From: Chloroflexota bacterium
GTDB taxonomy: Bacteria > Chloroflexota > UBA6077 > JACCZL01
Length of the DNA stretch: 43,743 nucleotides
Assembly: GCA_020845495.1 (NCBI GenBank)
Contig: JADLFM010000075.1
Location: forward strand, 1 to 43,743
Direction: 5' to 3'
Shown: in pieces, positions 481 through 14,802 of the stretch
Numbering within the stretch: the first letter of the stretch is position 1
How the letters are laid out: each line of letters opens with the position of its first letter
The notes under the pieces: generated by a model
Databases searched by the model: none
Told to the model about the DNA's origin: nothing
What the model saw: only the letters and a program-made list of their open reading frames with translations
Translations under genes and position numbers: made by a program

Positions 481-597
481 CGCCGGAGCTCGGACGCGTC
501 TGCGTACGGCGCGTCTCTTGAGCCAACGCCTCCGCCGGCCAGCCTTCATCTGGTCGGCGGACCGCCTCATGACAGGCTCATCGGAGGGTGAACCCAC

Positions 598-993: not shown

Positions 994-1001
994 GAGAGGA
1001 C

Positions 1002-1202
1002 ATGCCGGAGATCGAGTTCACGATCGACGTCACAACCGGCGATCTCACGATGCACGTCAAGGGCATCGCCGGTCCGGCCTGCGAGGATCTGGCCAGGCTG
1101 GCCAGGGAGCTCCTTGGAGAGCCCGCCCTTGACCAGAGTACGAGCGAATACTACGTCCGACCCCGGGTGCAACGGCAGATCCGGCCGAGGCAAGGGAGCT
1201 GA
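1002..1202 (+). CDS. DUF2997 small protein
   Basis: 66-residue protein, ATG 1002 preceded by AGGAGAGG at 992-999. The pattern MPEIEFTIDVTTGDLTMHV followed by KGIAGPAC and an amphipathic helix, then a SEYY segment, is what I know of DUF2997: a small beta-beta-alpha protein found with DUF1257. Function unknown. The ubiquitin-like cassette further down the same run invites asking whether DUF2997 is also a small protein tag, but nothing in its tail (RPRQGS, no GG) supports that directly. Gap to the next gene is 5 nt. Confidence 0.75.
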   Translation: MPEIEFTIDVTTGDLTMHVKGIAGPACEDLARLARELLGEPALDQSTSEYYVRPRVQRQIRPRQGS

Positions 1203-1207
1203 CGTCG

Positions 1208-1909
1208 ATGGCGGCCGAGTTGTCAATCGTCATCGACACGACGAACGGCACCCTCCTGATCGACGGGCCGGACCGGCTCCCCCGCGAGCTCCGAGACACA
1301 ATCGAAGGCCTGGCAGGGCCGGCCCAGTTGATCGCGTGCGCCGCACCCACCGAAGTGCGGACGCTCACGCCGGCCTCGGGTGGTGAGCTGACAGGTTCTA
1401 TCTGTGTTCGAATCGCCGGTTTTTGGCACGGCAGCCTGATAGAAGGGCCTGGTCGACGATCGGTCGCCAAGCTCCAGGGGTGTCCTGTCCGATGCCTCGG
1501 ATGCATTGCGCCGGAGACCTGGGACTCAAGCGGCGGGTTCGTCGTACCGGTGGAACGCCTCGCCGATGCGTTGCTCGACCCCGCCTACGAGCGAGATGGC
1601 GTCAGCATACTCGGGGGCGAACCGTTCTCCCAGCCGGAGGCGCTGTCGTCCCTCGTGCGTGAGCTTCGCTCGCGTAGCTGTCGTCACATCCTCTGCTACA
1701 GCGGCTACACCTACGAGACCCTGCTCCTTCGATCGAAGGCTGAACCGGCCGTCGCGGTCGTACTCGACGAGATCGACATGCTCATCGACGGTCCCTACGT
1801 GGCCGCCCGTGCCGACGGCGCCGGCCCCTGGACGGGAAGCGCCAATCAGCGTGTGTTGGCATTGAAGGCCTCGCCGCGGGCGCACAGTTCGGCGGGTGGC
1901 GCGTCATAG
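1208..1909 (+). CDS. 4Fe-4S single-cluster / radical-SAM-activase-like protein
   Basis: 233 residues. A cysteine cluster GCPVRCLGC (C-x3-C-x2-C) at about residues 95-103 is the radical SAM motif as found in NrdG/PflA-type activating enzymes, followed by a SILGGEPF segment (the GGE SAM-binding motif). The C-terminal GSANQRVLAL matches activase-type ends. The N-terminal roughly 60 residues are extra and resemble the preceding DUF2997 protein (E-hydrophobic-IDxTxGxL). RefSeq-style naming would be 4Fe-4S single cluster domain protein. The target of any radical chemistry is unknown; DUF1257, DUF2997 or the AAA protein are candidates by context. Confidence 0.75.
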   Translation: MAAELSIVIDTTNGTLLIDGPDRLPRELRDTIEGLAGPAQLIACAAPTEVRTLTPASGGELTGSICVRIAGFWHGSLIEGPGRRSVAKLQGCPVRCLGCIAPETWDSSGGFVVPVERLADALLDPAYERDGVSILGGEPFSQPEALSSLVRELRSRSCRHILCYSGYTYETLLLRSKAEPAVAVVLDEIDMLIDGPYVAARADGAGPWTGSANQRVLALKASPRAHSSAGGAS

Positions 1910-2087
1910 CTGAAGGATCCAGACACGACACGTCATCAGGTACGCCCGTGTGGCACCCCGGCGACCTGGCCTGGAGTGGCGATGGACCGTACCTCGCGCT
2001 CTCGGCCGGGGGATCGCGATGCGTGATCGCCGAGGCGCGGGTGAGCAGCCCGCGCCTACCCTTCTCTCGCTCAGCGGAGGATTGCCC

Positions 2088-3260
2088 TTGAACATCGATC
2101 AAGGTTCAGCGCGCCCCGACGCTCGCGGTGCTTCGGCGGCCATCGGTACCCGGAGTGCCGCGGTGGGTATCGCCGGCGTCAACACGCGTCCACTGATGCG
2201 CGCCGCCGATCCGTTGGTCGGCATCGCCGGCAATTGGGGCAGCACGCTCCGTCCGCATCTTGAAAGCACGCTGGAGCCAGGTGCCTCAATCAGCAAGGCC
2301 CGCCTCGGTGACCAGGCCGCGCTCCACGCATCAAAGAGGGCTTGCCTCTTCCTCGACTACACCTACCTGGCGTGTCCTGGCCGTGAAACCGGACGCATGC
2401 GCTACCCACCGGGATTTGATGCTCTTTGTGCTCCGGAGACGCGACGCCTGCCGATGTTTCTGGACAGCGCCGCCTACCGCGAGTTTGCCGGAGGCGCCCC
2501 GTCGTGGAGCAGTTACGCCCGCTACTGCGAGACGATCGACCTTGTGCGTCCAGATGGTGCGATGGCGAAGGATACGGTAGGTGACCAGGAGGCCAGTCGC
2601 CGAGGGTACGAGCAGATGTGTCGCGACGGCTACCGCGACATGACGATCCCGGTCTGGCAGGTCATGCCATCCTGGACGAACGACCTCTCGGTCGAAGCCA
2701 ACGCCTATCTCGCTGCGCGCGATCCCGTCCTGCGCTTCTACCGCGACCGCGCGCCGCTCGTCGCCATCGGTGGGCTGAACCAGAGTCCATGCCGCCGGAG
2801 CGAACGGCATCTGTACCTGCAGACCCTCTGCCGTGCCGTTCCCGACACCCAGTTCTGGGGTCTCGGTCAGGCGAATCCCGTCGTGGTGAACGGCCTCGGG
2901 CGCGCCGGGCTGCTCGACCGTGCCTGGGTGGACGGTAGCTGGTGGATCCACGACGCGCGAGCGGAAGTGCTAGCCGTGCTGGAGGACGGCCTCATCAAGT
3001 CGATCCGCCTCACGCGGACCGGTGCCCGAAGCTTCTTCCCCCTGCTGGATCTGATGAGCTGTAACCTGCGCTCGCTGCTCTCCGCCTACGCAGGGCTGTG
3101 GACCTTTCCAGGGCCGGCACGAGTTCCTACCAACATGGAGGATCTGGACGCTCGGCTGGAGCTACGGCGACGGCTGGGATCAGTCCAGCTTGACCTCTTC
3201 GACCCGGTTGATCCTCTCGAGGCTAGCGATGGCGTCCTCCCTGCGGCAACTGTCGCTTGA
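2088..3260 (+). CDS. TGT/DpdA-like transglycosylase with C-terminal clamp-binding motif
   Basis: Start chosen at TTG 2088 because GGAGG lies at 2076-2080; an in-frame extension to 1950 exists but is low-complexity and Arg-rich. The 390-residue protein has, in order, the signposts of a tRNA-guanine-transglycosylase TIM barrel: MFLDSAAYREF (TGT DSGGF region), AKDTVGDQEAS, IPVWQVMP, PLVAIGGL (TGT IGGL), FWGLGQANP and VDGSWWIHDA, where TGT/DpdA have a catalytic DS. I do not see the TGT zinc site (CxCxxC-H), which is also absent or altered in DpdA-type DNA enzymes. The protein ends VQLDLFDPVD, a perfect QLDLF beta-clamp-binding pentapeptide. Inference: a DNA base-exchanging enzyme tethered to the clamp encoded 1 kb downstream. 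Substrate unknown. Confidence 0.6.
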   Translation: MNIDQGSARPDARGASAAIGTRSAAVGIAGVNTRPLMRAADPLVGIAGNWGSTLRPHLESTLEPGASISKARLGDQAALHASKRACLFLDYTYLACPGRETGRMRYPPGFDALCAPETRRLPMFLDSAAYREFAGGAPSWSSYARYCETIDLVRPDGAMAKDTVGDQEASRRGYEQMCRDGYRDMTIPVWQVMPSWTNDLSVEANAYLAARDPVLRFYRDRAPLVAIGGLNQSPCRRSERHLYLQTLCRAVPDTQFWGLGQANPVVVNGLGRAGLLDRAWVDGSWWIHDARAEVLAVLEDGLIKSIRLTRTGARSFFPLLDLMSCNLRSLLSAYAGLWTFPGPARVPTNMEDLDARLELRRRLGSVQLDLFDPVDPLEASDGVLPAATVA

Positions 3261-4113
3261 CCTCACGCCACTGGAAGTGTCCCCATCGAGCGAGTGGTGT
3301 CAGCGCTGGCGTGACGGGCGTCCGCGCTGGCGGCACCGATCAGAGGGTGGGTTCGACGCAACGCAATACGAAGCCGGGCCGATCGACGACCGCACCGCCA
3401 AGGCGTATGTGGAGCGCAATCACTACGCCCGCACGTACGTTGCCAGCCGACTCCGGTACGGACTCTGGGATCGGCGAGGAGCCCTACTCGGCGTGGCCGT
3501 CCTGAGCATCCCTGTTCGCAAGGAGGTCTTGACTCTGCCCTTCCCAGACCTTGTGCCCTTCCACGAGTCACTCGAGCTTGGACGGCTCGTTCTGGCGGAT
3601 CGTGCACCGGCAAATTCTGAGAGCTGGTTTCTGGGTCAGGCGTTCCGGCTGGCAGCCCAGCAGGGCGTTCGCGGCGTGGTCAGCTTCTCCGACCCGGTCG
3701 CTCGATGCGACGCGACCGGCCAGCTCGTCTTTCCCGGACACATTGGCATCGCGTACCAGGCCAGCAACGCGATCTACGCCGGTCGCGGCACTGCGCGCAC
3801 CATCCTCATCCTGCCGGATGGTCGGGTGCTCAACGAGCGCGCCGTCTCGAAGCTCCGCAACCTCGAAGTGGGGCACGAGTATGTCGAACAGCTCCTGCGC
3901 CGATTCGGCGCACCTCCCCGACGGGGCGCGGCACCTTCGGAATGGATTCCCCGCGCTCTCACGACTGCCGGCATCAGGCGCCTGCGCCATCCTGGCAATC
4001 ACCGCTACCTGTTCCGACTCGGCGATCGGGCTGCCAGGCGGTCTGACGTGATAGCGCTGCCGAGCCTGCCCTACCCGAAGTCGACAGACCGGCCAGCGAC
4101 AGGCGCAGCGTAG
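3229..4113 (+). CDS. Mom-like GNAT-fold DNA-modification protein with N-terminal clamp-binding motif
   Basis: Start taken at ATG 3229 (294 aa), overlapping the previous gene by 32 nt; TTG 3190 is an alternative. The N-terminus SLRQLSLDLTPLE is very like the QLSLPL clamp-binding hexapeptide of Hda. The body has ERNHYARTY, LRYGLWDRRGALLGVAVLS, ESLELGRLVL, VVSFSDPVA and GIAYQASNAIYAGRG. That order (strand-helix core, LxRL segment, Y-x-A-[ST]-N, GxG) is the pattern of phage Mu Mom-type proteins, GNAT-fold enzymes that modify adenine in DNA. Family call is from memory of the fold pattern. Next to a TGT-like protein and a DNA methyltransferase it suggests DNA hypermodification, classically an anti-restriction strategy. 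Confidence 0.6.
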   Translation: MASSLRQLSLDLTPLEVSPSSEWCQRWRDGRPRWRHRSEGGFDATQYEAGPIDDRTAKAYVERNHYARTYVASRLRYGLWDRRGALLGVAVLSIPVRKEVLTLPFPDLVPFHESLELGRLVLADRAPANSESWFLGQAFRLAAQQGVRGVVSFSDPVARCDATGQLVFPGHIGIAYQASNAIYAGRGTARTILILPDGRVLNERAVSKLRNLEVGHEYVEQLLRRFGAPPRRGAAPSEWIPRALTTAGIRRLRHPGNHRYLFRLGDRAARRSDVIALPSLPYPKSTDRPATGAA

Positions 4114-4246
4114 CCAGGTCGTTCTTGGGGTTGCGGGCTCTCCATGCATGCCGCCGAGTCGCCTGCGAGCGGGCGGCTTGTGCCGCGGCGAGGGCGCTCA
4201 CAGACGCGTGGGTGTCCATCGCTTCAGATCCAATGGAAGAAAGCCT

Positions 4247-5389
4247 ATGGAGATCGCGGTCGATCAGTCCAATCTGAGCCGTGCGTTGCGGCTCGCTTGC
4301 CGGGCGCTCTCGACCAGGGCGCCTCTCCCGATCCTGCAGAACGTGCTGCTCGTGGCCGAGGCCGGTACGCTGACCCTGACCGCGGCCGATGGCGAGATCG
4401 TCCTGGTCACGACGGTGCCCGCCGATGTGACCCATCCAGGCCGGACCGCTGCTCCGGCTCGACTGCTCGCCGAGTACGTGTCGCAGCTTCCGTCCGAGCC
4501 TCTGCGCCTCCTCCTGGACGGCCCGGGGAAGCGTCTGCGCGCGACCTGTGGCCGCTTCGACGCCGGACTCTCAACGGCCGATCCTGACGACTTTCCGGTC
4601 TTGCCTCCCGCCGACCAGTCGACGGCTCTGGATCTTGACGCTCACCATCTGCGGCGAGCCATCGAGCGGGTGGCCTTCGCCGCCGCTCGGGACGACAGCC
4701 GTCCGATCCTGGCGGCGGTCTTGTTCGAGCTTGGCGAGCAGGGCTTGACGGTCGCGGCGGCCGACGGCTTCCGCCTGGCCCGGGCGGTTGTGGCCGGCGT
4801 CGCCGGGGACGATCGGCATCTGCTGGTGCCCGTGCGCGCCGTCGCAGAGTTTGGTCGGTTGCTGGTCGACGCCGACACGGCTCGTTTGATCGTCACGCCT
4901 GACGGCGGCGGCGTGCATCTCGTGGCAGGTGGCACGCGGCTGTTCAGTCGGCTCATCGACGGGCGCTTCCCCGACATCGATCGCGTCATCCCGCGCGAGG
5001 CGCGCACACGTGTGGTCGTGCAGACGGCGGGCTTCCGACAGGCCGTGCGTGTCGCCGGGCTATTCGGCAAGGATGGCCAGGTCCGACCCGTCGTCTTCGA
5101 GGCTCGACCGGGCGGTCTGCGGCTGATGGCACGTGGCGACGAAACCGGTGAAGCAGAGGGTGAGGTCGCGGCAATCGTGGCGGGGGAGGCACAGTCAGTC
5201 GCCCTGAACAGCCGGTTGCTCGTCGATCTTCTCGACACGGTTGATGGGTCTCAGCTCGAGCTCTCCTGGACGAGTCCACAATCGCCGGTTGTCGTCCGCG
5301 AGGTCGGGCATGAGGATTCTCCCGACCTCTGGTTGGCCATGCCGCTTCATCTGCCCCAGCTGGCCCGGCCGCTAGCCGAGGCCGCCTGA
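4247..5389 (+). CDS. dnaN: DNA polymerase III beta-subunit-like sliding clamp
   Basis: 380 residues from ATG 4247, with GGAAGAAA just upstream; a longer in-frame start at 4148 lacks support. All three clamp domains are recognisable: RAPLPILQNVLL in domain 1, DDSRPILAAVLFEL and VAAADGFRLA in domain 2, LIDGRFPDIDRVIP (near-invariant in DnaN), ALNSRLLVDLL in domain 3 and the closing AMPLHLP matching the MPMRL end that forms the peptide-binding cleft. The clamp encircles DNA and recruits proteins bearing QLxLF-type motifs. It sits inside a run of accessory genes with no dnaA, recF or gyrB nearby, so it is most likely an element-encoded extra clamp rather than the chromosomal one. Four neighbours carry such motifs. 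Confidence 0.9.
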   Translation: MEIAVDQSNLSRALRLACRALSTRAPLPILQNVLLVAEAGTLTLTAADGEIVLVTTVPADVTHPGRTAAPARLLAEYVSQLPSEPLRLLLDGPGKRLRATCGRFDAGLSTADPDDFPVLPPADQSTALDLDAHHLRRAIERVAFAAARDDSRPILAAVLFELGEQGLTVAAADGFRLARAVVAGVAGDDRHLLVPVRAVAEFGRLLVDADTARLIVTPDGGGVHLVAGGTRLFSRLIDGRFPDIDRVIPREARTRVVVQTAGFRQAVRVAGLFGKDGQVRPVVFEARPGGLRLMARGDETGEAEGEVAAIVAGEAQSVALNSRLLVDLLDTVDGSQLELSWTSPQSPVVVREVGHEDSPDLWLAMPLHLPQLARPLAEAA

Positions 5390-5451
5390 GACGTGTTTGC
5401 CGGTGGCCAGAGCGTCATCCGTCCATCGGCAAGCCTATCAGGAGCAATCCG

Positions 5452-6018
5452 ATGGAGCATGAGATGATGAACCACGTGCCGACGAGCGGACCTGACACGA
5501 ACGATGCCTGCGGCTGTACGCCGCCGGCAGGGTCGAAGGTCAGTCTGCTCGGTACCAGCAATCAGCCGTCGGAGCCGCTACCGACACCTGTGGCAGCCGT
5601 CGATCCCCCGGCGGCACGGCGGCCACTGAAGCTGGTCGTGACGCTCACGCCGATCGAGGGCGGAGCGTACCGAGCCGCCATCGCCCTGGGCGCCGACGGG
5701 TGTGACCCGCTGCTGAGGTCGATGACCGCATCAGGGCTTGCGGCAGCCCTCGAAGCGGTACCCCCGCTTCTGGAAGAGGCCGTGGCGTACTGGCAGGCCC
5801 ACCCAAGGAATCCGACGGCTGGGCGAGCCCCGGCCCGGCGGGCTGCCATCGATCGCCAGGAAACCCGTTCCGCGTCGGCGTCGTCCGCCACGGTCGAGCC
5901 GTCCTCCGAAGAGCGAGTGAGTGAGCGATCCGATGGCGACCCGACAGCGCCAGCGCCGGCTGAGCCCGTGGCCATGCGAGAGCGGCCAGCGGGTGGTCAG
6001 CTCACCTTGTTCGGCTGA
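5452..6018 (+). CDS. PRTRC protein E-like, with C-terminal clamp-binding motif
   Basis: 188 residues, ATG 5452 behind AGGAG at 5440-5444. A Pro/Ala-rich N-terminus (about 55 residues) precedes a compact domain LKLVVTLTPIEGGAYRA ... CDPLLRSMTASGLAAALEAV ... EEAVAYWQAHP. The rest is a disordered Arg/Ser/Glu-rich linker ending GGQLTLFG, a QLTLF clamp-binding pentapeptide at the extreme C-terminus. The position just before the Ub-like C protein and the predicted strand-strand-helix pattern suggest PRTRC system protein E, whose biochemical role is unknown. The domain call is moderate; the terminal motif is plainly visible. Confidence 0.5.
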   Translation: MEHEMMNHVPTSGPDTNDACGCTPPAGSKVSLLGTSNQPSEPLPTPVAAVDPPAARRPLKLVVTLTPIEGGAYRAAIALGADGCDPLLRSMTASGLAAALEAVPPLLEEAVAYWQAHPRNPTAGRAPARRAAIDRQETRSASASSATVEPSSEERVSERSDGDPTAPAPAEPVAMRERPAGGQLTLFG

Positions 6019-6037
6019 TCCTAATAGGAGGCGTAGG

Positions 6038-6445
6038 ATGCCGCGAGTCTTCGTCTACGACGGCCGCGAGTTCCCAGACCCCGACCCCAGCCTCTCCGTC
6101 GAGGATGTCCGCAAGCAGCTCGGCGACTTCTTCCCTGAGCTAACCAACGCTGAGACCCGTGAGGAGCGGCGGGGCGACGATGACGTGCGCTACACGTTCG
6201 CCAGGCGCATCGGCACCAAGGGGGCCGGCGGCCCCGACATTGTGGCGATCCTCCGACAGGTGCCGGAGAAGCACCTGGCAGTCTTCGGTCTTGCGGCTGA
6301 GCTGATCGACTCCGACGGCGAGCTGGATGCTGAGGCAGCAGCGGCACGGCAGCCTGAGATCAACCTGGCGATCGTCGAAGCCGAGTCGTACGCTCGTGCG
6401 ACGCGCCCGGCCGTAGAGGCACTTCGCCGCATTCCATCGCGGTGA
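6038..6445 (+). CDS. Ubiquitin-like PRTRC protein C with C-terminal extension
   Basis: 135 residues from ATG 6038, with a strong TAGGAGG at 6025-6031. The N-terminal 65 residues (MPRVFVYDGREFPDPDP, VRKQLGDFFPEL, YTFARRIGTKG) match PRTRC system protein C, which Aravind and colleagues classed as a prokaryotic ubiquitin-like (Prok_Ub) domain. The usual family member ends at GTKG at about 70 residues; here the chain runs on through AGG into another 65 residues of helical, Ala/Glu-rich sequence. E2-like, JAB and E1-like genes follow in order, so this is the presumed modifier. The GTKGAGG stretch could be a JAB cleavage site that exposes a Gly-Gly tail (inference). Confidence 0.7.
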   Translation: MPRVFVYDGREFPDPDPSLSVEDVRKQLGDFFPELTNAETREERRGDDDVRYTFARRIGTKGAGGPDIVAILRQVPEKHLAVFGLAAELIDSDGELDAEAAAARQPEINLAIVEAESYARATRPAVEALRRIPSR

Positions 6446-7302
6446 TCCCGCGCCCGACGACAGTTGGGCATGCGCTGCGACGGTCGCCGGTTATGCCGAC
6501 GTCCGTCGCAGCGCTGCTCGATGGCCATGCCGCTCAGCTCGAGTTCCGCCGCATCGTTGAAGAGATATTTCCCGACACGGCAACCGAGATTCTCGCCACC
6601 CGTCGGCCGGGTGAACGTCGAGAGCAGGCCCGGGTCGCGGCCTTCCTGAATCGGGTCGGCGCCGAGCTGTTCCCAGTCTACGAGGTGGAGGAGTACGAGC
6701 AGATCGTTGGTGGCGTGCCCTTCATTAGGAACGGATGGAGCTATGAGCGCCATCACGACTTGGATCTCCACCCCGGAGAGCTGCTGCTCTCCGCACTGTG
6801 CGCGCCGGCCTACGATGACGGTGCTCGGCTGGCGCTGCTGGACGCGGCTGAACAGCACGTAACCCGCGTGTTACTGGCCGCGATTCCGGAGGGAGGGTTC
6901 ACGCCGACAGATCTGCATGCCCGGCTCGACGGCACGCCGTACGTCGCGGCTGCCGAGTTCGCCGACTGGCACTGGGGCCAGACCGAGACCATCTTCCTCG
7001 ACGCTGACGACGAAATCGACGTCGACGTCGAGTGGACACACGAGAACGTCTCCGTGCTCGCCGAGCAGTGGCAGCGCGCCGAGGAGATCCTTGACCGCAT
7101 CACGGCCTTGACAAGCTGGATCGAAGCCGACCTGCCGACTCGGTTCGCACGCCTCGTAGATGCTGTGCTCGAACGAGATCACCACCTCACCTACCGACAG
7201 GAGCGGAGGTGCTATGCCTTCGAGATCACCCCAGAAGGGATCGTCGCGGTCCGGCTCGACGACTCCGACGCCATCCCCCTACCGATTGGTGCTGCCGTCT
7301 GA
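6442..7302 (+). CDS. Unknown protein of the PRTRC-like cassette
   Basis: 286 residues from GTG 6442, overlapping the previous stop by 4 nt (GTGA); ATG 6493 is an alternative start. I do not recognise the family. It is acidic and mostly helical: an N-terminal stretch EFRRIVEEIFPDTATEIL, a middle segment YEQIVGGVPFIRNGWSYE, a block FADWHWGQTETIFLDADDE with many acidic residues, then a long helix-rich region and a C-terminal strand RCYAFEITPEGIVAVRLDD. No signal peptide, membrane span or cysteine motif. Its fixed place between the Ub-like and E2-like genes, with overlaps on both sides, makes it a structural or adaptor member of the same system by inference. Confidence 0.7.
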   Translation: MIPRPTTVGHALRRSPVMPTSVAALLDGHAAQLEFRRIVEEIFPDTATEILATRRPGERREQARVAAFLNRVGAELFPVYEVEEYEQIVGGVPFIRNGWSYERHHDLDLHPGELLLSALCAPAYDDGARLALLDAAEQHVTRVLLAAIPEGGFTPTDLHARLDGTPYVAAAEFADWHWGQTETIFLDADDEIDVDVEWTHENVSVLAEQWQRAEEILDRITALTSWIEADLPTRFARLVDAVLERDHHLTYRQERRCYAFEITPEGIVAVRLDDSDAIPLPIGAAV

Positions 7303-7951
7303 CCTGGAACTGGAGGACGACCCGCTCCGACTTCGGCTCGATTTCCACGACGAGTCCGTGGTCATGCACGACTTCGCCGACGGGCCCATCCGGACCCGGC
7401 TGGTCTCGGCGCTCGACATCGCTCACGCCCTCGCGCGCGAGCTTGACCTGGACACTGGGCTGCTCCCGCGTGAGTGTCTCTGGTGGGCCAAGACGGCCGC
7501 CGGGGTTCGGATCGCCGTATGGCGCGAGCCGAAGGTTTGGACTGTCCGGCTGCGCGAGCGGTTCGACGCTCCGCCACGGCGACTACGCCTGCCGATGCCG
7601 GGTCTGGTGTTCATCTGCCTACCGGGGCGCCAACCACCGTACGTATTCGCGGCGAAGGAGCGGCCCTCAGCGATGACCGACGTGCTATATCGCTGCCCGA
7701 CCTACAACGTATTCGACACCGGGCGTGTCTGCACGGGATCGCACGAGTTTCCGTCTGACGCTTCGAAGGTGCCAGAGGCGTTCTTCGAGAGTTACTTCTC
7801 GGCTGTCGAGAGCACTGGCCGAGGGCGATCTCGACGCCACCCCGAGGACGTTGGTCAGCTCTGGGCTGAGCTACGGGGACAGGCATCGTTCCCGCTCGAC
7901 GATCTCGCGCCGCACGGCACCGTCGCCGACGTCATGCTGATCGGTCAGTGA
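7214..7951 (+). CDS. E2-like protein (PRTRC protein B, Prok-E2 family D)
   Basis: 245 residues from ATG 7214, chosen because GGAGG lies at 7205-7209; this overlaps the previous gene by 89 nt. GTG 7289 would reduce the overlap to 14 nt and keeps the whole conserved domain. The core LPMPGLVFICL ... YVFAAKERPS ... LYRCPTYNVFDTGRVCTGS matches PRTRC protein B, described in the literature as an E2-like fold; the Cys of GRVCTGS is the predicted conjugating cysteine. A C-terminal helix follows. Neighbours are a Ub-like protein upstream and JAB and ThiF genes downstream, the complete order of a bacterial Ub-like conjugation cassette. Stop overlaps the next GTG (GTGA). Confidence 0.7.
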   Translation: MPSRSPQKGSSRSGSTTPTPSPYRLVLPSDLELEDDPLRLRLDFHDESVVMHDFADGPIRTRLVSALDIAHALARELDLDTGLLPRECLWWAKTAAGVRIAVWREPKVWTVRLRERFDAPPRRLRLPMPGLVFICLPGRQPPYVFAAKERPSAMTDVLYRCPTYNVFDTGRVCTGSHEFPSDASKVPEAFFESYFSAVESTGRGRSRRHPEDVGQLWAELRGQASFPLDDLAPHGTVADVMLIGQ

Positions 7952-8580
7952 CGGTGAGCATGGTCGAGTACCTGATTGCTCGTGATGGCGTGCCGCCCCG
8001 GGAGGGTCTGGCCTTCGACTACCTGTTAGCGGGCGACGGCATTTACCTTGTCGCCGAGAACGACGACCTGGCGGTCCGCGTGCCGATTGCCGGCTGCAAT
8101 GTCCGAGGTCTGCCGCCCGTGTATCCGGCATGTACCCTGGAGCATGGTCGGCTCCCCCAGTGGATCTGGGATGCGATCGTCTGGGCGGCACACGTCGGTT
8201 ACATGAGCGCCCGTGAGGTGCTGGTAGCGGTCACGTTTGATCCGAATGTCGGATACTGCCTGACCGTCCCGCCACAGATCGCCGGGCCGGAACGGGTCGT
8301 GTACCGGCCGCCAACGTCGGCGGTGCTGGAAGTCCACTCCCACGGGCCGCACCCCGCAGTGTTCAGTTCGACCGACGATCGCGACGAGCAGGGGCTGCGC
8401 CTGTACGGCGTGATTGGCTGCCTGAACAGATCCCGGCCTGAAGTCGCCCTCCGCGTCGGCGCCTATGGCCACTATCTGCGAGTGCCATGGGAGTCCATAT
8501 TTGATGGCGACATTGGGCCGTACCACGACGGCCACAACGGGTCAAACACAGAGTGTGCGATCGATGGCGTATGTGATTGA
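7948..8580 (+). CDS. JAB/JAMM metallopeptidase (PRTRC protein A-like)
   Basis: 210 residues from GTG 7948 (4-nt overlap); ATG 7960 is also possible. The JAMM zinc motif is visible: a Glu (LEVHSHG), HxH, then SSTDD giving the S-x-x-D. It is preceded by VVYRPPTSA and followed by RLYGVIGCL, as in PRTRC system protein A (Mov34/MPN/PAD-1). JAB peptidases cut ubiquitin-like proteins after the terminal glycines, either to mature the modifier or to remove it from targets. About 115 N-terminal residues precede the JAB core, longer than a minimal JAB. Gene order supports action on the Ub-like protein at 6038-6445. Confidence 0.8.
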   Translation: MTVSMVEYLIARDGVPPREGLAFDYLLAGDGIYLVAENDDLAVRVPIAGCNVRGLPPVYPACTLEHGRLPQWIWDAIVWAAHVGYMSAREVLVAVTFDPNVGYCLTVPPQIAGPERVVYRPPTSAVLEVHSHGPHPAVFSSTDDRDEQGLRLYGVIGCLNRSRPEVALRVGAYGHYLRVPWESIFDGDIGPYHDGHNGSNTECAIDGVCD

Positions 8581-9424
8581 CGCTCACGGCGACCCGTCCG
8601 GGCCGAGCGCTGGCGATCACGGCGCGACCATCGTGCTCGTCGGCTGCGGCGGGACCGGCGGGTTCCTGGCCGAATCGGTCTGCCGATTGCTCATCGGATG
8701 TCCGGCGCGGCTCTACCTGGTCGATCCAGACCGCGTCGAGCCGCACAATGTCGCACGCCAGGCGTTCGATCACCGAGATGTCGGCCGCTTCAAGGCGGAG
8801 GTGCTGGCCGAACGGTTCGCTCGTCGCTTCGAGCGCGAGGTGAGCTACTCGGTCCTGCCCTACGGCCGTGAGTTACACGCCGGTGTCTTTCGCGATACAG
8901 CCGGGAGTCTCCGGCTGCTGGTCGGTTGCGTCGACAACGCCGCTGCCCGTCGGGCGATTGCCTCGACGCTCGACGGTGCCGCGCGGGCCGGGGCGCGCTC
9001 GCATGGTTGCTGGTGGTTGGATACCGGCAACAACCGCAACTCCGGCCAGGTACTTCTCGGCAACACAACGCGACCCGAAGCGCTGCGGCGCGCCTTCGTC
9101 CCCGCCGACGGGAGATGCCGAGCGCTGCCGGCCCCGAGCCTCCAGCGCCCCGACCTGCTGAGCTCCCCGCCCGAACCGACGCCGCAACCGGATTGTGCGG
9201 AGGCGGTCGCCGCCGCGGAGCAGGGTCGGACGATAAACCAGGTCGTCGCGTCGATCGCCGCGAGCTACGTCGAGAAGCTGCTGGCCGACACGTGTCGCTG
9301 GATGGCCACGTACTTCGATCTGGACGACGGGATGTTCCGCTGCCTGCCGGCTGACCCGAAGCTGGTCGCCGACCTTGCCGGACTGCACCTGAACGCCGTC
9401 GCGCCGCCGACCGCTCGACGTTGA
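8564..9424 (+). CDS. ThiF/E1-like adenylyltransferase (PRTRC ThiF family)
   Basis: 286 residues from ATG 8564, overlapping the JAB gene by 17 nt. Rossmann nucleotide-binding loop VLVGCGGTGGFLAES, then LVDPDRVEPHNVARQAF and DVGRFKAEVLAERF, the standard ThiF/MoeB/E1 series: the Asp that binds ATP ribose, the N-x-x-RQ arginine and the Lys. A later VGCVDNAAARR matches the family's CVDN/D-NxxAR segment. PDCAEAVAAAEQ near residue 210 contains a Cys that could form the thioester. Established family role: adenylation of the C-terminus of a Ub-like protein. With Ub-like, E2-like and JAB genes adjacent, the conjugation pathway is complete on paper. Confidence 0.85.
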   Translation: MAYVIDAHGDPSGPSAGDHGATIVLVGCGGTGGFLAESVCRLLIGCPARLYLVDPDRVEPHNVARQAFDHRDVGRFKAEVLAERFARRFEREVSYSVLPYGRELHAGVFRDTAGSLRLLVGCVDNAAARRAIASTLDGAARAGARSHGCWWLDTGNNRNSGQVLLGNTTRPEALRRAFVPADGRCRALPAPSLQRPDLLSSPPEPTPQPDCAEAVAAAEQGRTINQVVASIAASYVEKLLADTCRWMATYFDLDDGMFRCLPADPKLVADLAGLHLNAVAPPTARR

Positions 9425-9488
9425 GCGGTACCCGACAGACGATCGAGCAGGGAGCCCCTCACTCGGGCTTCTTGCTCAAGGGGCCATC

Positions 9489-10205
9489 ATGCATGATGAA
9501 CATGAGCGCGACGGCGGTCATGCGACGAGCTTGCCGATCGGGACGACCGAATCCCTCTCCCTGCCGGTCCTCCAGGCGGGCGGCTTCGGTGCAAGCGTCG
9601 ATGCCTTTGCCTGGGAGCCCGATTCAGACGCCAATCCTCCCAGGATGCGCCTCTGGCTCGTGTCACTCCTGGGATCGCAGCAGGCCGTCAAGGCCCTCTG
9701 GGCTCAACTCATCCAGGGCGAGACGGCCACGCTGAGCAACGACCACGGCAGCTCTCGATTCTGTGTGCTGGCTCCGGAAGGTGCGCGCGGCTGGCGATGC
9801 TTCAGGGCCTCGCTGCCGGCATCGGGCGGCTACCACGGCCTGCTCGTCCCGGAGTTGGCGCTGTTCACCGCCGAGCACACCGACTTCCTGCTTCTGCGGC
9901 GCCCTGACGATGACGTCGCGACGCTTCACTATCGCTTTCTCAACCGGAGGGTGATCCTGCCACTCCATCCGAGCTGGGCCGACTGGCTCTGGAATCGGGC
10001 TCTCCGATCCGGCGAGGCTCGGACGCTGGAGTCGCGTGGGCTGGACGCGTACCGCTGCGTCCCGGACGAGGCCGCACTTGCAGCGGATCTGGCGGCCGAC
10101 ATCCGGCGAGGCGTGCTGAGTATCACCGACGAGAACGTCGGACACGCGCAGCCTCGGATCCCGATCGAGACCATCGTGGAGAAGATCGGACATGGCGCGA
10201 CTTGA
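9489..10205 (+). CDS. Unknown cassette protein
   Basis: 238 residues from ATG 9489 with AAGGGG about 6 nt upstream. Family not recognised. It reads as a soluble alpha/beta protein: RMRLWLVSLLGSQQAVKALW near the N-terminus, a strand-turn series SSRFCVLAPEGARGWRCF and GYHGLLVPELALF, then FLLLRRPDDDVATLHYRFL and a helical C-terminus with SWADWLWNRALRSG. No metal or nucleotide-binding motif is evident. The stop overlaps the methyltransferase start by 14 nt, so the two are translationally coupled, suggesting a partner of that enzyme or of the helicase. Confidence 0.7.
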   Translation: MHDEHERDGGHATSLPIGTTESLSLPVLQAGGFGASVDAFAWEPDSDANPPRMRLWLVSLLGSQQAVKALWAQLIQGETATLSNDHGSSRFCVLAPEGARGWRCFRASLPASGGYHGLLVPELALFTAEHTDFLLLRRPDDDVATLHYRFLNRRVILPLHPSWADWLWNRALRSGEARTLESRGLDAYRCVPDEAALAADLAADIRRGVLSITDENVGHAQPRIPIETIVEKIGHGAT

Positions 10206-11241
10206 GTCCGTTGCTCGCGCGGGCTACTACCCGACTCCATCTCGCGTGGCAGCAGCCGTTGCTCAGCACCTCAGCCGCTCGGTCGGCGGTGCGAGGCGCG
10301 TCGTCCGCCTGCTCGACCCGTGCGCTGGCACCGGCGAGGCGGCGGCATGGGTCGCAGATTCCCTTGGCGCGGAGAGCTTCGGCATCGAGCTGAACGAGGT
10401 GCGCGCCGTCGCAGCCCGCGATCGGCTCGACCACGTGCTGCACACGTCCGCTTTCTCGGTCCGTTTGACGAACGGCGCATTCTCCTGCCTCTATCTGAAC
10501 GCGCCGTACGACCACGACGATGAGGCCCGTCGCCTTGAGCACGCATTCCTGACCAGCCTGACACGAGCGCTCTGTGTAGGCGGCCTGCTCATCTACGTCG
10601 TCCAGCAATCTCGGCTGGTCGTGTCCTCTCGTTACCTCTCGAGCCACTACACCGGCTTTCAGGCGTTCCGGTTTCCCGACCCGGAGTACGGTGCTTTTCG
10701 GCAGATGGTGCTCTTCGCGAGCCGCAAGCCGAAGGGCATCAACGATGCGTTCGCGCGGGCGCAGTTGGACGAGTGGAGCCGCGGCGACCTTGCGCCGCTA
10801 CCGGAGGCTCCAGCCGCACCAACGGTGGTCGTGCCGTCGCTCCCCGTCGACGACGTCCTGTTCGCCTCGCTCACGGTCGACCCAGAGCAGGCTGCGTCAG
10901 AGGCAAGACGGCGCGGTGCCTGGATCCAGCCCGAGCTGGCCGAGCAGCTCTGGCCGCCCGACGAGCGTCCGGTCCGTCCGTTGATGCCGCTGCGACGGGG
11001 GCACCTGGCGTTGCTGATCGCGGCCGGTATGCTGAACAACTGCGCCCTGGACCGGCGCGATCGGCGCGTGCTCGTCAAGGGCAGGACCTACAAGGAGTCG
11101 GTGCGCATCGACAGCGATGACGATGACGTCGAGATACAGCGCGAGGTGATCCGGACGTCAATCGCCGTCCTCGATCTGGCGACCGGAGACTTTGAGATCG
11201 TCGAACAGGACGATCGGGTCCCTGCGGAGCGGGCGGCATGA
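10192..11241 (+). CDS. DUF6094-like SAM-dependent DNA methyltransferase
   Basis: 349 residues from ATG 10192. The N-terminal half is a class I methyltransferase: GYYPTPSRVAAAVAQ, motif I LLDPCAGTGEAAAW, GIELNEVRA (ribose-binding acidic residue), and the catalytic tetrapeptide region LYLNAPYDHDD, i.e. NAPY in place of the NPPY of amino-methylating DNA methyltransferases. After about residue 180 there is a Pro/Arg linker and a beta-rich C-terminal domain (LMPLRRGHLALLIAAGM). This matches my memory of DUF6094 proteins on plasmids and integrative elements. It overlaps the downstream helicase by ATGA; such pairs occur in DNA-modification or plasmid-maintenance modules. Target base and sequence cannot be read from this. 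Confidence 0.75.
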   Translation: MARLESVARAGYYPTPSRVAAAVAQHLSRSVGGARRVVRLLDPCAGTGEAAAWVADSLGAESFGIELNEVRAVAARDRLDHVLHTSAFSVRLTNGAFSCLYLNAPYDHDDEARRLEHAFLTSLTRALCVGGLLIYVVQQSRLVVSSRYLSSHYTGFQAFRFPDPEYGAFRQMVLFASRKPKGINDAFARAQLDEWSRGDLAPLPEAPAAPTVVVPSLPVDDVLFASLTVDPEQAASEARRRGAWIQPELAEQLWPPDERPVRPLMPLRRGHLALLIAAGMLNNCALDRRDRRVLVKGRTYKESVRIDSDDDDVEIQREVIRTSIAVLDLATGDFEIVEQDDRVPAERAA

Positions 11242-13496
11242 ATTTGTCCGAGCTGCTCGATCAGTACGGGGAAGCGATCACCAGGACGGTCATCGATACC
11301 TACCCGCCGATCTACGATGTCGAGGCTCGTCGCACGGGCGGCACCGACCTCGGGCGACTCCTGCGCCGGCCGCTCGCAGCGCAGGCCGATGCAATCAACG
11401 CCACGGTCCTCTCGCTCAAGCGACACCCGGGCACGATCGTGGTCGGCGAAATGGGCACCGGCAAGAGCTACATCGCCACCGCGGCGGCCTACCTCGCCGG
11501 CTGCCAGCGCATACTGATTTTGTGTCCACCTCACCTCGTCAAGAAGTGGCGGCGCGAGATTTTGCAGACCGTCCCCGGCGCGCAGGCTACGGTCGTGCGG
11601 ACGGCCACCGATCTCGAGCACGTTAGGCGACTTGGTGGCGCGACTCACTTCGTCATCTGCTCGCGCGAGCGGGCGAAGCTCGGCTACCGCTGGGTGCCGG
11701 CCACCGTGGAGCGACGCAGTCGTGCGGTCGGCGAAGGGCTCGCTCCGGCGGACGACGGGCGAATCGCCACGCTCCTGTGCTGCCCGACCTGCTTCGTGCC
11801 GGCGACCGACGACGAGGACGTGCCCCTGACGTGGGCTGAGCTTCGGACGAAGAAGCGCCGCTGCCGCGCCTGCGACGGGCCGCTCTGGCAAGCCGACCGC
11901 ACCGGTCCACGTCGGGTCGCGCTGGCCGACTACGTTCGGCGCCGGATGTCGAAGTTCTGGGATCTCCTGGTGATCGACGAGGCGCACGAGTATAAGGCCC
12001 GGGGCTCTGCGCAGGGTCTTTCCGCTGAGGCGCTCACCGGCGTCTGTCAAAAGACGCTCGCACTGACTGGAACGCTTCTTGGTGGGTACAGCTCGACGCT
12101 GTTCTACCTGCTCTGGCGATTCTCGCCGACCGTGCGCCGTGAATTCGGCTACAAGGATGAAGCCAAATGGATCAGCCGGTACGGCGTCGTCGAGCGCATC
12201 AGGAAGAAGGTCCCGGACGCCTACAGCGAGGATGGACGCTACTCGAAGCGTCGAAGCTACCTGACCCGGACGGTCGAGAAGCCAGGCATCTCGCCGGCAG
12301 CGCTCTTCCACCTGATCGGCAACACGGTCTTCCTGCGCCTATCGGATGTGGCCAATGACCTTCCGACCTACACCGAGCAGGTCGCCGTCTGCGCACTCGA
12401 CCGGGGCCACGATCACGAGACGCCATCGCAGGCGAGTTGCTACCAGCGCCTGGCGGGCGAGCTTCGCCAGGCGACAGGTGCCGCCCTGGCAGCGGGATCC
12501 AAACGTTTGCTCGCGGCCTACCTCCAGGCACTCCTGGCGTATCCCGACGCCTGCACTCGGGGCGAGACGGTCCTGGATCCGCTGACCGGAAATGTGATCG
12601 CCCATGCGCCGGCCCTGCCCGAGGATTGTCTCTATCCGAAGGAGCGGGCGCTGGTGGATCTGGCGCTTCGTGAGCGCTCGCGAGGGCGGCGCTTGTTGGT
12701 GTACATCACCCACACCGAGCGGCGCGACCTCAGTCCACGCCTGCGTACGGTCCTGGAGCGAGCCGGCCTCACGGTCGCCGCCCTCAAGTCCGATACGGTG
12801 GCCGCCGATCGGCGCGAGGAGTGGCTGGCGGAACGAGTACACGAGGGAGCAGACGCCCTCATTTGTCACCCGCGCCTCGTCCAGACGGGGCTCGACTTGA
12901 TCGACTGGCCCTCAATCTCCTGGTACCAGACCGACTTCAGCGTGTATGTGATGCGGCAGGCGAGCCGGCGCTCGTGGCGCATCGGGCAGCGTCAGCCAGT
13001 CGAGGTCACGCATCTGGTCTATGAAGAAGCGCTCCAGGCCGAGGCGCTGGCACTCGTGGCAGCCAAGATGCGCTCGGCGCTGATGCTCGAGGGGGAGATC
13101 CCCGAGGATGGTCTCGCCGCATTGGAGGGAGATAGCCAGGACGTCCTGCTAACGCTGGCACGCCGGTTGACGGACCAAGCCTCGGCTCATCCGGAGTCAC
13201 TCGAAGCGCTATTCTCCCAGAGGCGAGAGGTCGATGCACAAACAGACAACTTCCTCGCACCTGGTGACTGGCGTGTTTCCGAATCGTCACCCGCGTCTGA
13301 CGACGGCGGCATCGCGGGTCCGTCGCAGCTTGGGCTCGGTGACGAGACAGTGGGAGATGAAAGTGATCCAGCTCGAGCCGTCGGGGGCGGCCGTGGTCGT
13401 CTGGTCACCTTCCAGGAGATCGCCCGATTGATTCGCCGACCGACATCGCGAGGTCGACGGATCCCGGCTGAGCAGATGTCGCTCTTTGACGAGTAA
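11238..13496 (+). CDS. SNF2/DEAH superfamily-2 helicase with C-terminal clamp-binding motif
   Basis: 752 residues from ATG 11238, coupled to the methyltransferase (ATGA). Walker A GEMGTGKSYIA, motif Ia LILCPPHLVKKW, DEAH box LLVIDEAHEY, motif III LALTGTLLGG and motif VI RQASRRSWRIGQ are all present, so the ATPase is intact. A zinc-ribbon-like insertion (CCPTC ... CRACDG) lies between motifs Ia and II near residues 178-215. The last residues are EQMSLFDE, a QMSLF clamp-binding pentapeptide at the extreme C-terminus. The clamp tether suggests the motor works at replication forks or on newly made DNA. The stop at 13494-13496 is followed 24 nt later by a strong hairpin, the end of the run. Confidence 0.9.
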   Translation: MNLSELLDQYGEAITRTVIDTYPPIYDVEARRTGGTDLGRLLRRPLAAQADAINATVLSLKRHPGTIVVGEMGTGKSYIATAAAYLAGCQRILILCPPHLVKKWRREILQTVPGAQATVVRTATDLEHVRRLGGATHFVICSRERAKLGYRWVPATVERRSRAVGEGLAPADDGRIATLLCCPTCFVPATDDEDVPLTWAELRTKKRRCRACDGPLWQADRTGPRRVALADYVRRRMSKFWDLLVIDEAHEYKARGSAQGLSAEALTGVCQKTLALTGTLLGGYSSTLFYLLWRFSPTVRREFGYKDEAKWISRYGVVERIRKKVPDAYSEDGRYSKRRSYLTRTVEKPGISPAALFHLIGNTVFLRLSDVANDLPTYTEQVAVCALDRGHDHETPSQASCYQRLAGELRQATGAALAAGSKRLLAAYLQALLAYPDACTRGETVLDPLTGNVIAHAPALPEDCLYPKERALVDLALRERSRGRRLLVYITHTERRDLSPRLRTVLERAGLTVAALKSDTVAADRREEWLAERVHEGADALICHPRLVQTGLDLIDWPSISWYQTDFSVYVMRQASRRSWRIGQRQPVEVTHLVYEEALQAEALALVAAKMRSALMLEGEIPEDGLAALEGDSQDVLLTLARRLTDQASAHPESLEALFSQRREVDAQTDNFLAPGDWRVSESSPASDDGGIAGPSQLGLGDETVGDESDPARAVGGGRGRLVTFQEIARLIRRPTSRGRRIPAEQMSLFDE

Positions 13497-13519: not shown

Positions 13520-13563
13520 GACTCATGCTTGGGGCAGCGACACCTGCTGTCCCTGCATGAGTC
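13520..13563 (+). terminator. Hairpin terminator-like structure after the helicase gene
   Basis: Arms GACTCATGC (13520-13528) and GCATGAGTC (13555-13563) pair perfectly; inside, GGGGCAGC (13531-13538) pairs with GCTGTCCC (13546-13553) with one G-T wobble. The 3' side runs into a T-rich stretch (cttctttatttctg). It fits a factor-independent terminator for the long plus-strand operon, though the T-run is imperfect. Confidence 0.6.
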
Positions 13564-13794
13564 GTCGCTTCTTTATTTCTGTTGAGGTGTCAAGTGGTGG
13601 CTCCCGTTCGGGTGACGACCGAGTACATGGACCGCCAGGGCGATGGAACGACCGGGCAGGACGGATCGCCGAGTTGTTGATAGATCGAGCGCACGGCAGG
13701 GCGGAGTGCGTCATCCTGCGTTGAGAACAACGGTTGTGGCCGCTCGCGACCGGAGGTAGGTTCTCCTCGCCTGGCCGAAAATAGGGCCTTTCTT

Positions 13795-14181
13795 TGTGTC
13801 CGGCGAGCGTCAGGCGGTGGTCGGCGGGCCGCTCACCGCGAGGAAGCGAGCCGGCGTGCAAACGTCGATGCGGTCGGCCCTCGCATGGACGCCCTGCGAG
13901 TGGCGGAACTGGGCCGCCTGATTCCGGTCGATGGCACCGCGCAGCAGCCCTGATCGTCAGAATCTCCACGATGGTCGGAGGGTAGCGGCCGGTCGCCTCG
14001 AGACCGATCAGCATGGCATGGGCCTCCGAGGCGAGCCCTTCCAAGCACGCCTGGAGGCGCTCGAAGCCGGCATAGCTGACCGGGAGGACGATCCGACCGA
14101 CGACGCGATCTCTCGCGGGATCGTAGACGGCGCCTGAAGGCTGCGCTCGCCAATGTTGATGCCGACGGTGATGCGAGGCAT
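13795..14181 (-). pseudogene. IS110-family transposase remnant (N-terminal half, frameshifted)
   Basis: Read on the minus strand from ATG 14181, three frames carry successive pieces of an IS110 DEDD transposase: MPRITVGINIGERS, then in another frame EGLASEAHAMLIGLEATGRY, then in a third NQAAQFRHSQGV followed by ADRIDVCTPARFL. The first catalytic Asp (GIDxG) is Asn here. The C-terminal Ser-containing half is absent. It is a dead fragment marking an old insertion just beyond the operon end. The edges are approximate. Confidence 0.75.
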
Positions 14182-14802
14182 CCCCTCACCCGCACACGGG
14201 ATGTCGGAAACGTGCGGGGCTACCTCAACCCACTGCCGAACACGCCGGGACAGGACTGACGACGATCGCCGCACCACACTTCTCGAGCAGATGTCTTTTC
14301 GGTGGTTGCCACCAAAAAGACAGAGGTAGCCTGAGGGCCACACTCTTTGACCGTTGACAGGAGTCCCCCACGCATCGCCAACTCCACCTTCCGGTGGGCG
14401 GGCTGGCCGACAACGGTGGCGAAATTCTCTACGTGCTTGTCCTCATCGCTCCGGGACTGTGCGCTGTTACGAAGCCGCGCTTGGCCGGCATCGCAGTGCG
14501 GTGACCGCGCGGGTCGGCGCGCGAGTATTCACCAGCAATCGGATCAGGCACGGACGGAAACCAGGCGTGGACCTGGCGAGAGATGAGCTAGTGCATATGG
14601 CCTGCGCTCAGGACCTGTCACCGATAGACGCGCCGCCGACACGAGGCGTCTCATCACGCTTGCCGACGACGTAGGCGTGATTACGGTGCTTGCGCGTTTT
14701 CAGTCCTAGCATGGTCTCAGACTCGGTGCCGCTAGCTGGTAGCCGGGCGGAGACCGTCAGTTCGCCGCAGGAAAGCTCGGGTTATGATCGCAGAGGTGTA
14801 GC
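14182..14802. other. Region without a convincing gene; contains a stem-loop
   Basis: The six-frame reading frames here are short, Arg/Ser-rich and lack ribosome-binding sites or family resemblance. The one clear structure is a stem-loop at 14295-14319: arms cttttcGGTGG and CCACCaaaaag, one mismatch, with loop ttg. The stretch next to the IS110 remnant may be decayed mobile DNA. The last 50 bp must hold the promoter and the AGAGGTG ribosome-binding site of the gene at 14803. Confidence 0.5.

What the first reader, a model, noticed from the sequence alone, without database searches (positions are those of the whole stretch)
2088..13496. An element-encoded sliding clamp whose neighbours carry four separate clamp-binding motifs
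Seen: a DnaN homologue (4247-5389) lies among genes whose products end or begin with QLDLF (TGT-like, C-terminal), RQLSLDL (Mom-like, N-terminal, like Hda's QLSLPL), QLTLF (PRTRC-E-like, last residues) and QMSLF (SNF2 helicase, last residues). Established: QL[SD]LF and QLxLxL are the beta-clamp-binding consensus. Inference: a dedicated clamp acts as a tool belt for a DNA-modifying, Ub-like-regulated and helicase-driven system. I know of no description of such a set. Four independent matches, three at the extreme C-terminus, are unlikely by chance.
Basis: partly seen in the sequence, partly recalled or inferred. Interest (0 to 1): 0.92.

Follow-up and report, generated by a model that had tools for sequence, protein, structure and literature searches.

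The report
Clamp-docking ubiquitin-like DNA-modification cassette
A bacterial mobile element appears to carry its own DNA sliding clamp together with a ubiquitin-like protein-tagging cassette and DNA-modifying enzymes, several of which bear the short peptide by which proteins dock onto such clamps, suggesting a clamp-centred machine.

Summary
The window encodes a true DnaN (4247-5389). Four co-directional neighbours carry consensus clamp-binding motifs: TGT-like QLDLF, Mom QLSLDL, E-like QLTLF, helicase QMSLF. 4 of 12 ORFs in the block have a terminal motif, 0 of 36 elsewhere in the window; shuffles average 0.04. The motifs are conserved: 56 of 62 E homologues besides the window's own, 77 of 90 TGT-like proteins reaching the tail (shuffles 1.0), 6 of 6 complete helicases of window-type loci, 3 of 3 Mom N-termini. 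The cassette is PRTRC-related: ubiquitin-like protein, E1, E2 and JAB with active-site residues kept. Cyanobacterial plasmids carry relatives near their own dnaN, dnaX and holA. A motif on E or F and a replicon-borne DnaN go together, 17 of 18 against 3 of 14 loci, though few contrasts are independent of kinship. I conclude that the motifs are probably real clamp tethers and that the Ub-like cassette and DNA-modification enzymes work on clamp-loaded element DNA. Binding, the clamp used and the Ub-like target are untested. A PCNA-style lysine switch on this clamp is disfavoured.

The parts
1950..3260 (+). TGT/DpdA-like protein; real start probably about 2124; QLDLF motif at 3186-3200
3229..4113 (+). 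Mom-like DNA modification protein; QLSLDL motif at 3247-3264
   Evidence: PF25680 84.9 bits, cut-off 27.1; PHROG 1384 Mom-like 1.7e-30; N-terminal motif also in L114 (QLPLDL) and L112 (QLSLDL, in a decaying copy)
4247..5389 (+). element-encoded beta sliding clamp (DnaN)
   Evidence: TIGR00663 222.8 bits; 11 of 19 tabulated cleft positions identical to E. coli, among them L155, G174, R176, L177, P242, R246, V247, M362, P363; related genomes carry such a clamp plus another, presumably chromosomal, DnaN
5452..6018 (+). PRTRC-E-like adaptor: folded core about 57-120, low-confidence linker, C-terminal QLTLF at 5998-6012
   Evidence: Model: core blocks pLDDT 79-97, linker about 50; Q 36/38, L 37/38, F 37/38 at motif columns; 56 of 62 other homologues keep the motif. 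No hit to TIGR03741
6038..6445 (+). ubiquitin-like protein (PRTRC C) with C-terminal extension after the GTKG end of the core
   Evidence: PF14454 and TIGR03738 above cut-off; G101 in 33 of 39 aligned
6442..7302 (+). PRTRC F-position protein, function unknown
   Evidence: Conserved in position in many related loci; in L005, L011 and L076 the homologue carries the terminal motif
7160..7951 (+). E2-like protein (Prok-E2_D, PRTRC B)
   Evidence: PF14460 63.3 bits; C191 in 43 of 44
7948..8580 (+). JAB-type peptidase (PRTRC A)
   Evidence: PF14464 28.3 bits, cut-off 25; E90, H130, S131, H132 and D143 in 39 of 39
8546..9424 (+). ThiF/E1-like adenylating enzyme
   Evidence: PF00899; TIGR03736 117.8 bits, below its cut-off 144.75; R98, K110, D157 and C244 (numbered from 8465) in 46 of 46
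9489..10205 (+). conserved protein of unknown function (X238)
   Evidence: Homologues in L001, L002, L004, L069, L070, L071, L082; no Pfam hit
10192..11241 (+). DUF6094 methyltransferase, first half of a possible split DarB-like pair
   Evidence: PF19587 83.5 bits
11238..13496 (+). SNF2/DEAD-type helicase, second half of the pair; QMSLF at 13473-13487
   Evidence: phrog_62 DNA helicase 6.1e-32; terminal motif in 6 of 6 complete copies of window-type loci

Best explanation
The block is a mobile-element module built round its own beta clamp. The terminal QL[ST]LF-type peptides are genuine clamp-binding tethers (strongly supported by conservation, not measured). E is an adaptor: a small folded domain on a disordered leash ending in the tether, which brings the PRTRC-related Ub-like cassette (Ub, E1, E2, JAB) to clamp-loaded DNA (inferred). 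The TGT-like enzyme, the Mom-like enzyme and the methyltransferase-helicase pair dock on the same clamp in turn, so that newly copied element DNA is modified behind the fork before host restriction can act (inferred). The Ub-like cassette would then mark or release proteins on that clamp platform; its target is unknown. The cleft used is most likely that of the replicon-borne clamp (inferred from co-occurrence).
For: Motif conservation in otherwise variable tails: E; TGT-like, including 9 hexapeptide replacements; helicase and Mom. Cleft largely conserved. DnaN beside the cassette in Chloroflexota MAGs and, with dnaX, holA and in some a polymerase and delta-prime, in cyanobacterial plasmids, where the polymerase end (QLSLF) and the delta-prime start (QLDLL, QLELL) carry the same kind of motif as E. 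Co-occurrence 17 of 18 against 3 of 14. At least 27 of 37 plasmids with the E1 gene also carry a DnaN match. Clamps of the two phyla lie with different chromosomal relatives, so recruitment probably happened more than once. In L005, L011 and L076 the neighbouring F carries a motif where E has none. L001 has an SspD/PAPS-reductase-like gene with QLTLPL near its C-terminus beside the TGT-like gene.
Against: No binding data and no complex model. The co-occurrence is confounded by kinship: 3 independent contrasts on supported branches, sign test p 0.25. DnaN absence is not established for L006, L007 and L087, whose whole genomes were not searched. The L083 clamp is divergent and below the family cut-off. 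A Pseudanabaena plasmid has the E motif without a DnaN match. tblastn with the Anabaena plasmid's dnaX, polB, holA and delta-prime found none within 20-50 kb of window-type elements, so the clamp would need the host loader; other polymerase types were not sought. Twelve of 32 sampled loci lack the motif on E and F. The fused methyltransferase-helicase of L082 and the large helicases of L096 and L100 lack a terminal motif. No DNA modification has been seen.
Confidence: 0.6

Rival explanations
1. The tails are real clamp-binding motifs but dock on the host chromosomal clamp; the element DnaN serves only element replication.
For: The E motif also occurs on a complete plasmid without a DnaN match (L099, QMTLL). 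Presumed host and element clefts share key residues. A DUF3102 protein next to a clamp-less cassette starts with M..QLTLF (L078, Pfam; L079 and L081 look alike).
Against: The E/F motif tracks replicon-borne DnaN (17 of 18 against 3 of 14). Six genomes whose cassette lacks the motif have a single DnaN match at E up to 1e-10: G029, G039, G048, G066, G114, G250.
Confidence: 0.22
2. Ordinary neighbours: a plasmid-type replisome plus cargo, where each protein has its own routine reason to touch a clamp and the Ub-like cassette has nothing to do with it.
For: Polymerase and delta-prime in cyanobacterial plasmids carry motifs for ordinary reasons. Clamp and cassette are 15-59 kb apart in 10 of 25 plasmids.
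Against: The most conserved motif is on E, encoded directly upstream of the Ub gene, in two phyla. In three loci where E lacks it, F in the same cassette has it. DnaN was probably recruited separately in the two phyla.
Confidence: 0.12
3. The tails are recognised by something other than a clamp, for example by the cassette's own E1/E2 or F, and resemble the clamp consensus by convergence.
For: No binding has been measured; the E motif occurs without a nearby DnaN in some loci.
Against: Four unrelated proteins share it. The TGT-like tail swaps QLDLF for QLALDL, QLPLEL or QLPLGL at one place, the two known clamp-motif forms. Known clamp binders (a polymerase, delta-prime) in the same plasmids carry it.
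Confidence: 0.06

Closest known systems
PRTRC cassette (ParB-related, ThiF-related cassette; NCBIfam TIGR03735-TIGR03741)
   Same: Gene order E-C(Ub)-F-B(E2)-A(JAB)-ThiF and homologous A, B, C and ThiF
   Different: No TIGR03741 match for E; E and F correspond to the classic ones by position only. A clamp, DNA-modification enzymes and consensus clamp motifs are added. The one classic plasmid searched (Hydrogenophaga) has no DnaN match, and classic E tails end in xSLF/xALF without the Q
Beta-clamp-binding proteins (Pol II, Pol IV, Hda, delta; review PMC11139829, passages seen)
   Same: QL[S/D]LF or QLxLxL peptides, several in terminal tails
   Different: Borne here by DNA-modification enzymes and a Ub-cassette adaptor, next to an element-encoded clamp
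DarB-like antirestriction methyltransferase-helicase (phrog_10089)
   Same: Methyltransferase plus helicase; the fused 1749-aa relative in L083 matches DarB-like strongly and ends QLTLF
   Different: Two genes in the window, which do not themselves match phrog_10089
Plasmid replication-associated methyltransferases M.EcoGIX / M.BceJIII (PMC7736820, start of abstract and passages seen)
   Same: Plasmid-borne modification tied to replication; the authors mention the sliding clamp when discussing a possible intermediary host protein
   Different: Different enzymes, single-strand specific; neither an element clamp nor a Ub cassette appears in the passages seen
PCNA ubiquitylation in eukaryotes (recalled)
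   Same: Ub-like machinery meeting a sliding clamp
   Different: No conserved lysine acceptor here: the L001 clamp has 0 lysines, the L071 clamp 0-1

Membership tests
Beta sliding clamp (DnaN) | Three clamp domains and equivalog score | tested here: met
   PF00712, PF02767, PF02768; TIGR00663 222.8 bits, cut-off 137.65
Beta sliding clamp (DnaN) | Peptide-binding cleft residues | tested here: met
   11 of 19 tabulated positions identical to E. coli; changed ones include T172A, Y323L, S346P, V360L, M364L. The choice of positions is recalled
Clamp-binding motif proteins | Conserved consensus peptide near a terminus | tested here: met
   E motif follows a low-confidence linker; the TGT-like motif lies at the end of the last helix (block pLDDT 59) before a low-confidence tail
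Clamp-binding motif proteins | Physical binding to a clamp | not testable with these tools
   No complex prediction or assay was available
PRTRC cassette | C (Ub-like) above curated cut-off | tested here: met
   TIGR03738 50.5 bits, cut-off 45.95
PRTRC cassette | ThiF, A and B above curated cut-offs | tested here: not met
   All hit (4.6e-34, 2.4e-12, 2.3e-17) but below cut-off: related, not filed as members
PRTRC cassette | E matches TIGR03741 | tested here: not met
   No match at E up to 1
PRTRC cassette | ParB-related protein | tested here: inconclusive
   tblastn with one cyanobacterial ParB found none in the window; the window is cut on the left
Mom DNA modification proteins | PF25680 above cut-off | tested here: met
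   84.9 bits, cut-off 27.1
TGT/DpdA transglycosylases | TGT TIM-barrel fold | tested here: met
TGT/DpdA transglycosylases | 7-deazaguanine exchange into DNA | not testable with these tools
   No PADLOC match for this protein; the substrate is unknown
DarB antirestriction | Match to DarB-like family | tested here: inconclusive
   The L083 relative matches phrog_10089; the window's methyltransferase matches phrog_9133 and phrog_6263 and its helicase phrog_62 and others
PCNA-type clamp ubiquitylation | Conserved acceptor lysine on the clamp | tested here: not met
   Window clamp 2 lysines, L001 0, L071 0-1

The most novel reading that the evidence does not exclude
A bacterial ubiquitin-like conjugation pathway that is physically organised on a dedicated sliding clamp: E (or F) docks the E1/E2/JAB cassette on the element's own clamp, and the same clamp hands nascent element DNA to transglycosylase, Mom and DarB-like enzymes. 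It would be a clamp-Ub connection that arose separately from eukaryotic PCNA control, assembled more than once with different host-derived clamps.
Probability: 0.35. Interest if true: 0.93.

Novelty: new variant of a known kind. Interest (0 to 1): 0.8.

Why it matters
PRTRC-type Ub-like cassettes occur on many plasmids; the searches I ran showed no assigned function, though I read none of the 26 listed PRTRC papers. A conserved clamp tether on E, and on F in some loci where E lacks it, gives a concrete place of action that can be tested. If true, it links bacterial Ub-like conjugation to the replication fork and shows DNA-modification enzymes being delivered by a sliding clamp, which would explain how a replicating element keeps its new DNA protected from restriction.

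Tried and rejected

Rows dropped: the 32-locus table left out loci with no E/Ub/F in view, truncated contigs, near-duplicates (L079, L091, L095), L069 (E with an in-frame stop), L097 and L100 (incomplete cassette), and L028 (classic; counted). L096 was labelled DnaN-less; one search then found a divergent DnaN there (126 bits, below the cut-off of 137.65), and the corrected table is. The tree and independent-pairs result were not recomputed. Only 60 of 106 DnaN plasmid rows and 120 of 141 TGT-like hits were visible. The E set of 63 contains the window's own protein. In one search, G082 was included by slip and is not counted. One fetched flank read as N throughout and another in part; the background was recounted without such ORFs (314 instead of 316). 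E-values of the home-made profiles are inflated for sequences that went into the profiles.

Literature: (26 papers with PRTRC; listing only, none read). Passages read in PMC11139829, PMC7736820, PMC1779556, PMC7824862 and PMC7159879. No description of a clamp-linked PRTRC cassette was seen, but the library lacks most subscription papers.
Full report
What is in the window. From base 31 to 13496 all the genes I assign run in one direction, many with overlapping ends. They encode an AAA ATPase fragment, a DUF1257 protein, an NrdG-like radical SAM protein, a TGT-like protein, a Mom-like protein, a sliding clamp, and a PRTRC-related Ub-like cassette: E-like, Ub, F-position, E2-D, JAB and ThiF. A conserved unknown, a DUF6094 methyltransferase and an SNF2/DEAD-type helicase follow. 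No whole genome is held for the window.

The four motifs. They meet the consensus quoted in a 2024 review, which also cites studies that found QLDLF the strongest binding peptide (PMC11139829, passages seen). Terminal motifs occur in 4 of 12 block ORFs and 0 of 36 others in the window; shuffled proteins gave a mean of 0.039 and never 4 in 5000 trials. Of 314 usable ORFs in flanks and plasmids of related elements 8 had one, all in element genes.

Conservation. Relatives of the ThiF gene were found in 10 genome loci, 5 virus-collection loci, 32 of 400 Chloroflexota and 9 of 292 cyanobacterial genomes at E up to 1e-15 (the weakest of these are probably other ThiF families), and 198 plasmids at E up to 1e-5. 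In the E alignment of 14 sequences, with 15-50% identity to the window, the invariant columns include Q183, L186 and F187 of the motif. In 38 sequences Q is kept in 36, L in 37 and F in 37, while the linker before it is the least conserved part. Of 63 E homologues in the protein database, the window's own included, 57 have the motif in the last residues; the other six look truncated or frame-shifted by eye. The TGT-like tail: of 120 listed homologues 90 reach the tail by a sequence anchor I chose, and 77 carry the motif (68 five-residue, 9 six-residue forms), against 1.0 expected from shuffles; several of the 13 misses keep a near form such as QFELF or QMDLW. The helicase tail is kept in 6 of 6 complete copies of window-type Chloroflexota loci: window QMSLF, L001 QLALF, L113 QLTLF, L069 QLSLF, L070 QLTLF, L071 QLGLF. 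It is also at the end of the 1749-aa DarB-like fusion in L083 (QLTLF), but not in the fusion of L082 nor in the large helicases of L096 and L100. The Mom start is kept in 3 of 3: window, L114 and L112, the last a decaying copy.

The clamp. Against E. coli DnaN (L119) the element clamp is identical at 11 of 19 tabulated cleft positions, among them L155, G174, R176, L177, P242, R246, V247, M362 and P363. The five genomes searched first each have two or three DnaN matches; one of the three in G005 is a short fragment. In the tree, Chloroflexota element clamps sit near the presumed Chloroflexota chromosomal clamps and cyanobacterial plasmid clamps with the presumed cyanobacterial chromosomal ones; well-supported branches force at least two changes between element and chromosome, and several branches are long or open. 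So the association with the cassette probably arose more than once.

Context in cyanobacteria. Plasmids of Anabaena, Chroococcidiopsis, Trichormus and Gloeothece carry genes of the cassette with dnaN, dnaX and holA, in some an annotated polymerase and delta-prime, and in Anabaena an SSB. The Anabaena polymerase matches family-B models. In Chroococcidiopsis only A and ThiF of the cassette are annotated. Terminal motifs in these plasmids fall mainly on the polymerase C-terminus, the delta-prime (or AAA ATPase in its place) N-terminus, and E where it is present; in Trichormus also on an R-M subunit and a hypothetical protein. Leptolyngbya pLBX has dnaX, delta-prime, holA and a divergent DnaN beside the cassette. 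Of 37 plasmids with the E1 gene at E up to 1e-20, 25 are in the visible DnaN list; two more were found by profile, two have none, and eight are unresolved. In 15 of the 25 the two genes are within 10 kb. tblastn with the Anabaena plasmid's dnaX, polB, holA and delta-prime found none within 20-50 kb of the window-type Chloroflexota elements, only ssb.

Does the motif go with the clamp? Among 33 loci, all 13 with DnaN in the fetched stretch have the motif on E or F, and 7 of 20 without. Four of those 7 turned out to have DnaN elsewhere on the same contig, and L096 has DnaN with a degenerate E tail, QRSLF. Corrected, and without the classic L028: 17 of 18 with DnaN, 3 of 14 without; Fisher p 2.9e-5 ignoring kinship. 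For three of the 14 (L006, L007, L087) the rest of the genome was not searched for DnaN, and several others are fragments. On the ThiF tree only 3 independent contrasts exist on supported branches; none goes the other way, and the sign test is not significant (p 0.25; made before the L096 correction). In six genomes whose cassette lacks the motif only one DnaN match exists. In L005, L011 and L076 the motif sits at the end of F.

The Ub-like cassette looks active. The JAB E, H, H and D residues are kept in 39 of 39, the E2 cysteine in 43 of 44, and key E1 residues in 46 of 46. The Ub core ends in a conserved K-G (G in 33 of 39); in L005, L087 and L090 the protein stops there, so the extension seen in the window is probably trimmed, perhaps by the JAB peptidase (the trimming is inference).

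Reading. The tails are very probably clamp tethers. The best explanation is a clamp platform of the element serving DNA modification and the Ub-like cassette. Host-clamp docking and mere co-residence remain open. A PCNA-style lysine acceptor on the clamp is disfavoured: window clamp 2 lysines, L001 0, L071 0 in the aligned part and 1 in the whole ORF.

Novelty. I saw no held paper that describes a clamp-linked PRTRC cassette (open-access library only, the PRTRC papers seen as a listing). The window cassette is PRTRC-related but fails several curated cut-offs, so I call it a variant rather than a member.

Noticed in passing
L001:2474-3727: A PAPS-reductase/SspD-like protein directly upstream of the TGT-like gene has QLTLPL 16 aa from its C-terminus: a possible fifth tethered DNA-modification enzyme.
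   Followed up: partly
L078:8278-9186, L081:10896-11813: A protein encoded next to ThiF starts with M..QLTLFDYNALD in clamp-less cassettes; the L078 one is DUF3102 by Pfam.
   Followed up: partly
window 31-993; L008:359-2747; L096:22640-25065: An AAA ATPase and DUF1257 pair recurs near these cassettes in Chloroflexota and cyanobacteria (annotation only for L096).
   Followed up: no
window 1208-1909: NrdG-like radical SAM protein upstream of the TGT-like gene, also in L001, L003 and L071; its role is unknown.
   Followed up: no
L005:5795-5977, L087:6058-6444, L090:761-1147: Ub-like proteins that stop exactly at TKG, while others carry an extension that in many ends in G-F or G-W.
   Followed up: partly
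P0064-P0087 (classic PRTRC E): 21 of 24 classic E proteins end in LF (for example DESLF, SAALF), resembling the Q-less clamp motif of delta.
   Followed up: partly
L069 and L112 (one copy in G093): One of two element copies in this genome is decaying: E and Mom each have an in-frame stop.
   Followed up: no
L003:3455-4747: Ub and F are one open reading frame.
   Followed up: no
window 13523-14343: Reverse-strand ORFs bordering the block on the right; the one scanned (13523-14044) had no NCBIfam match; a decayed mobile-element gene is possible.
   Followed up: no
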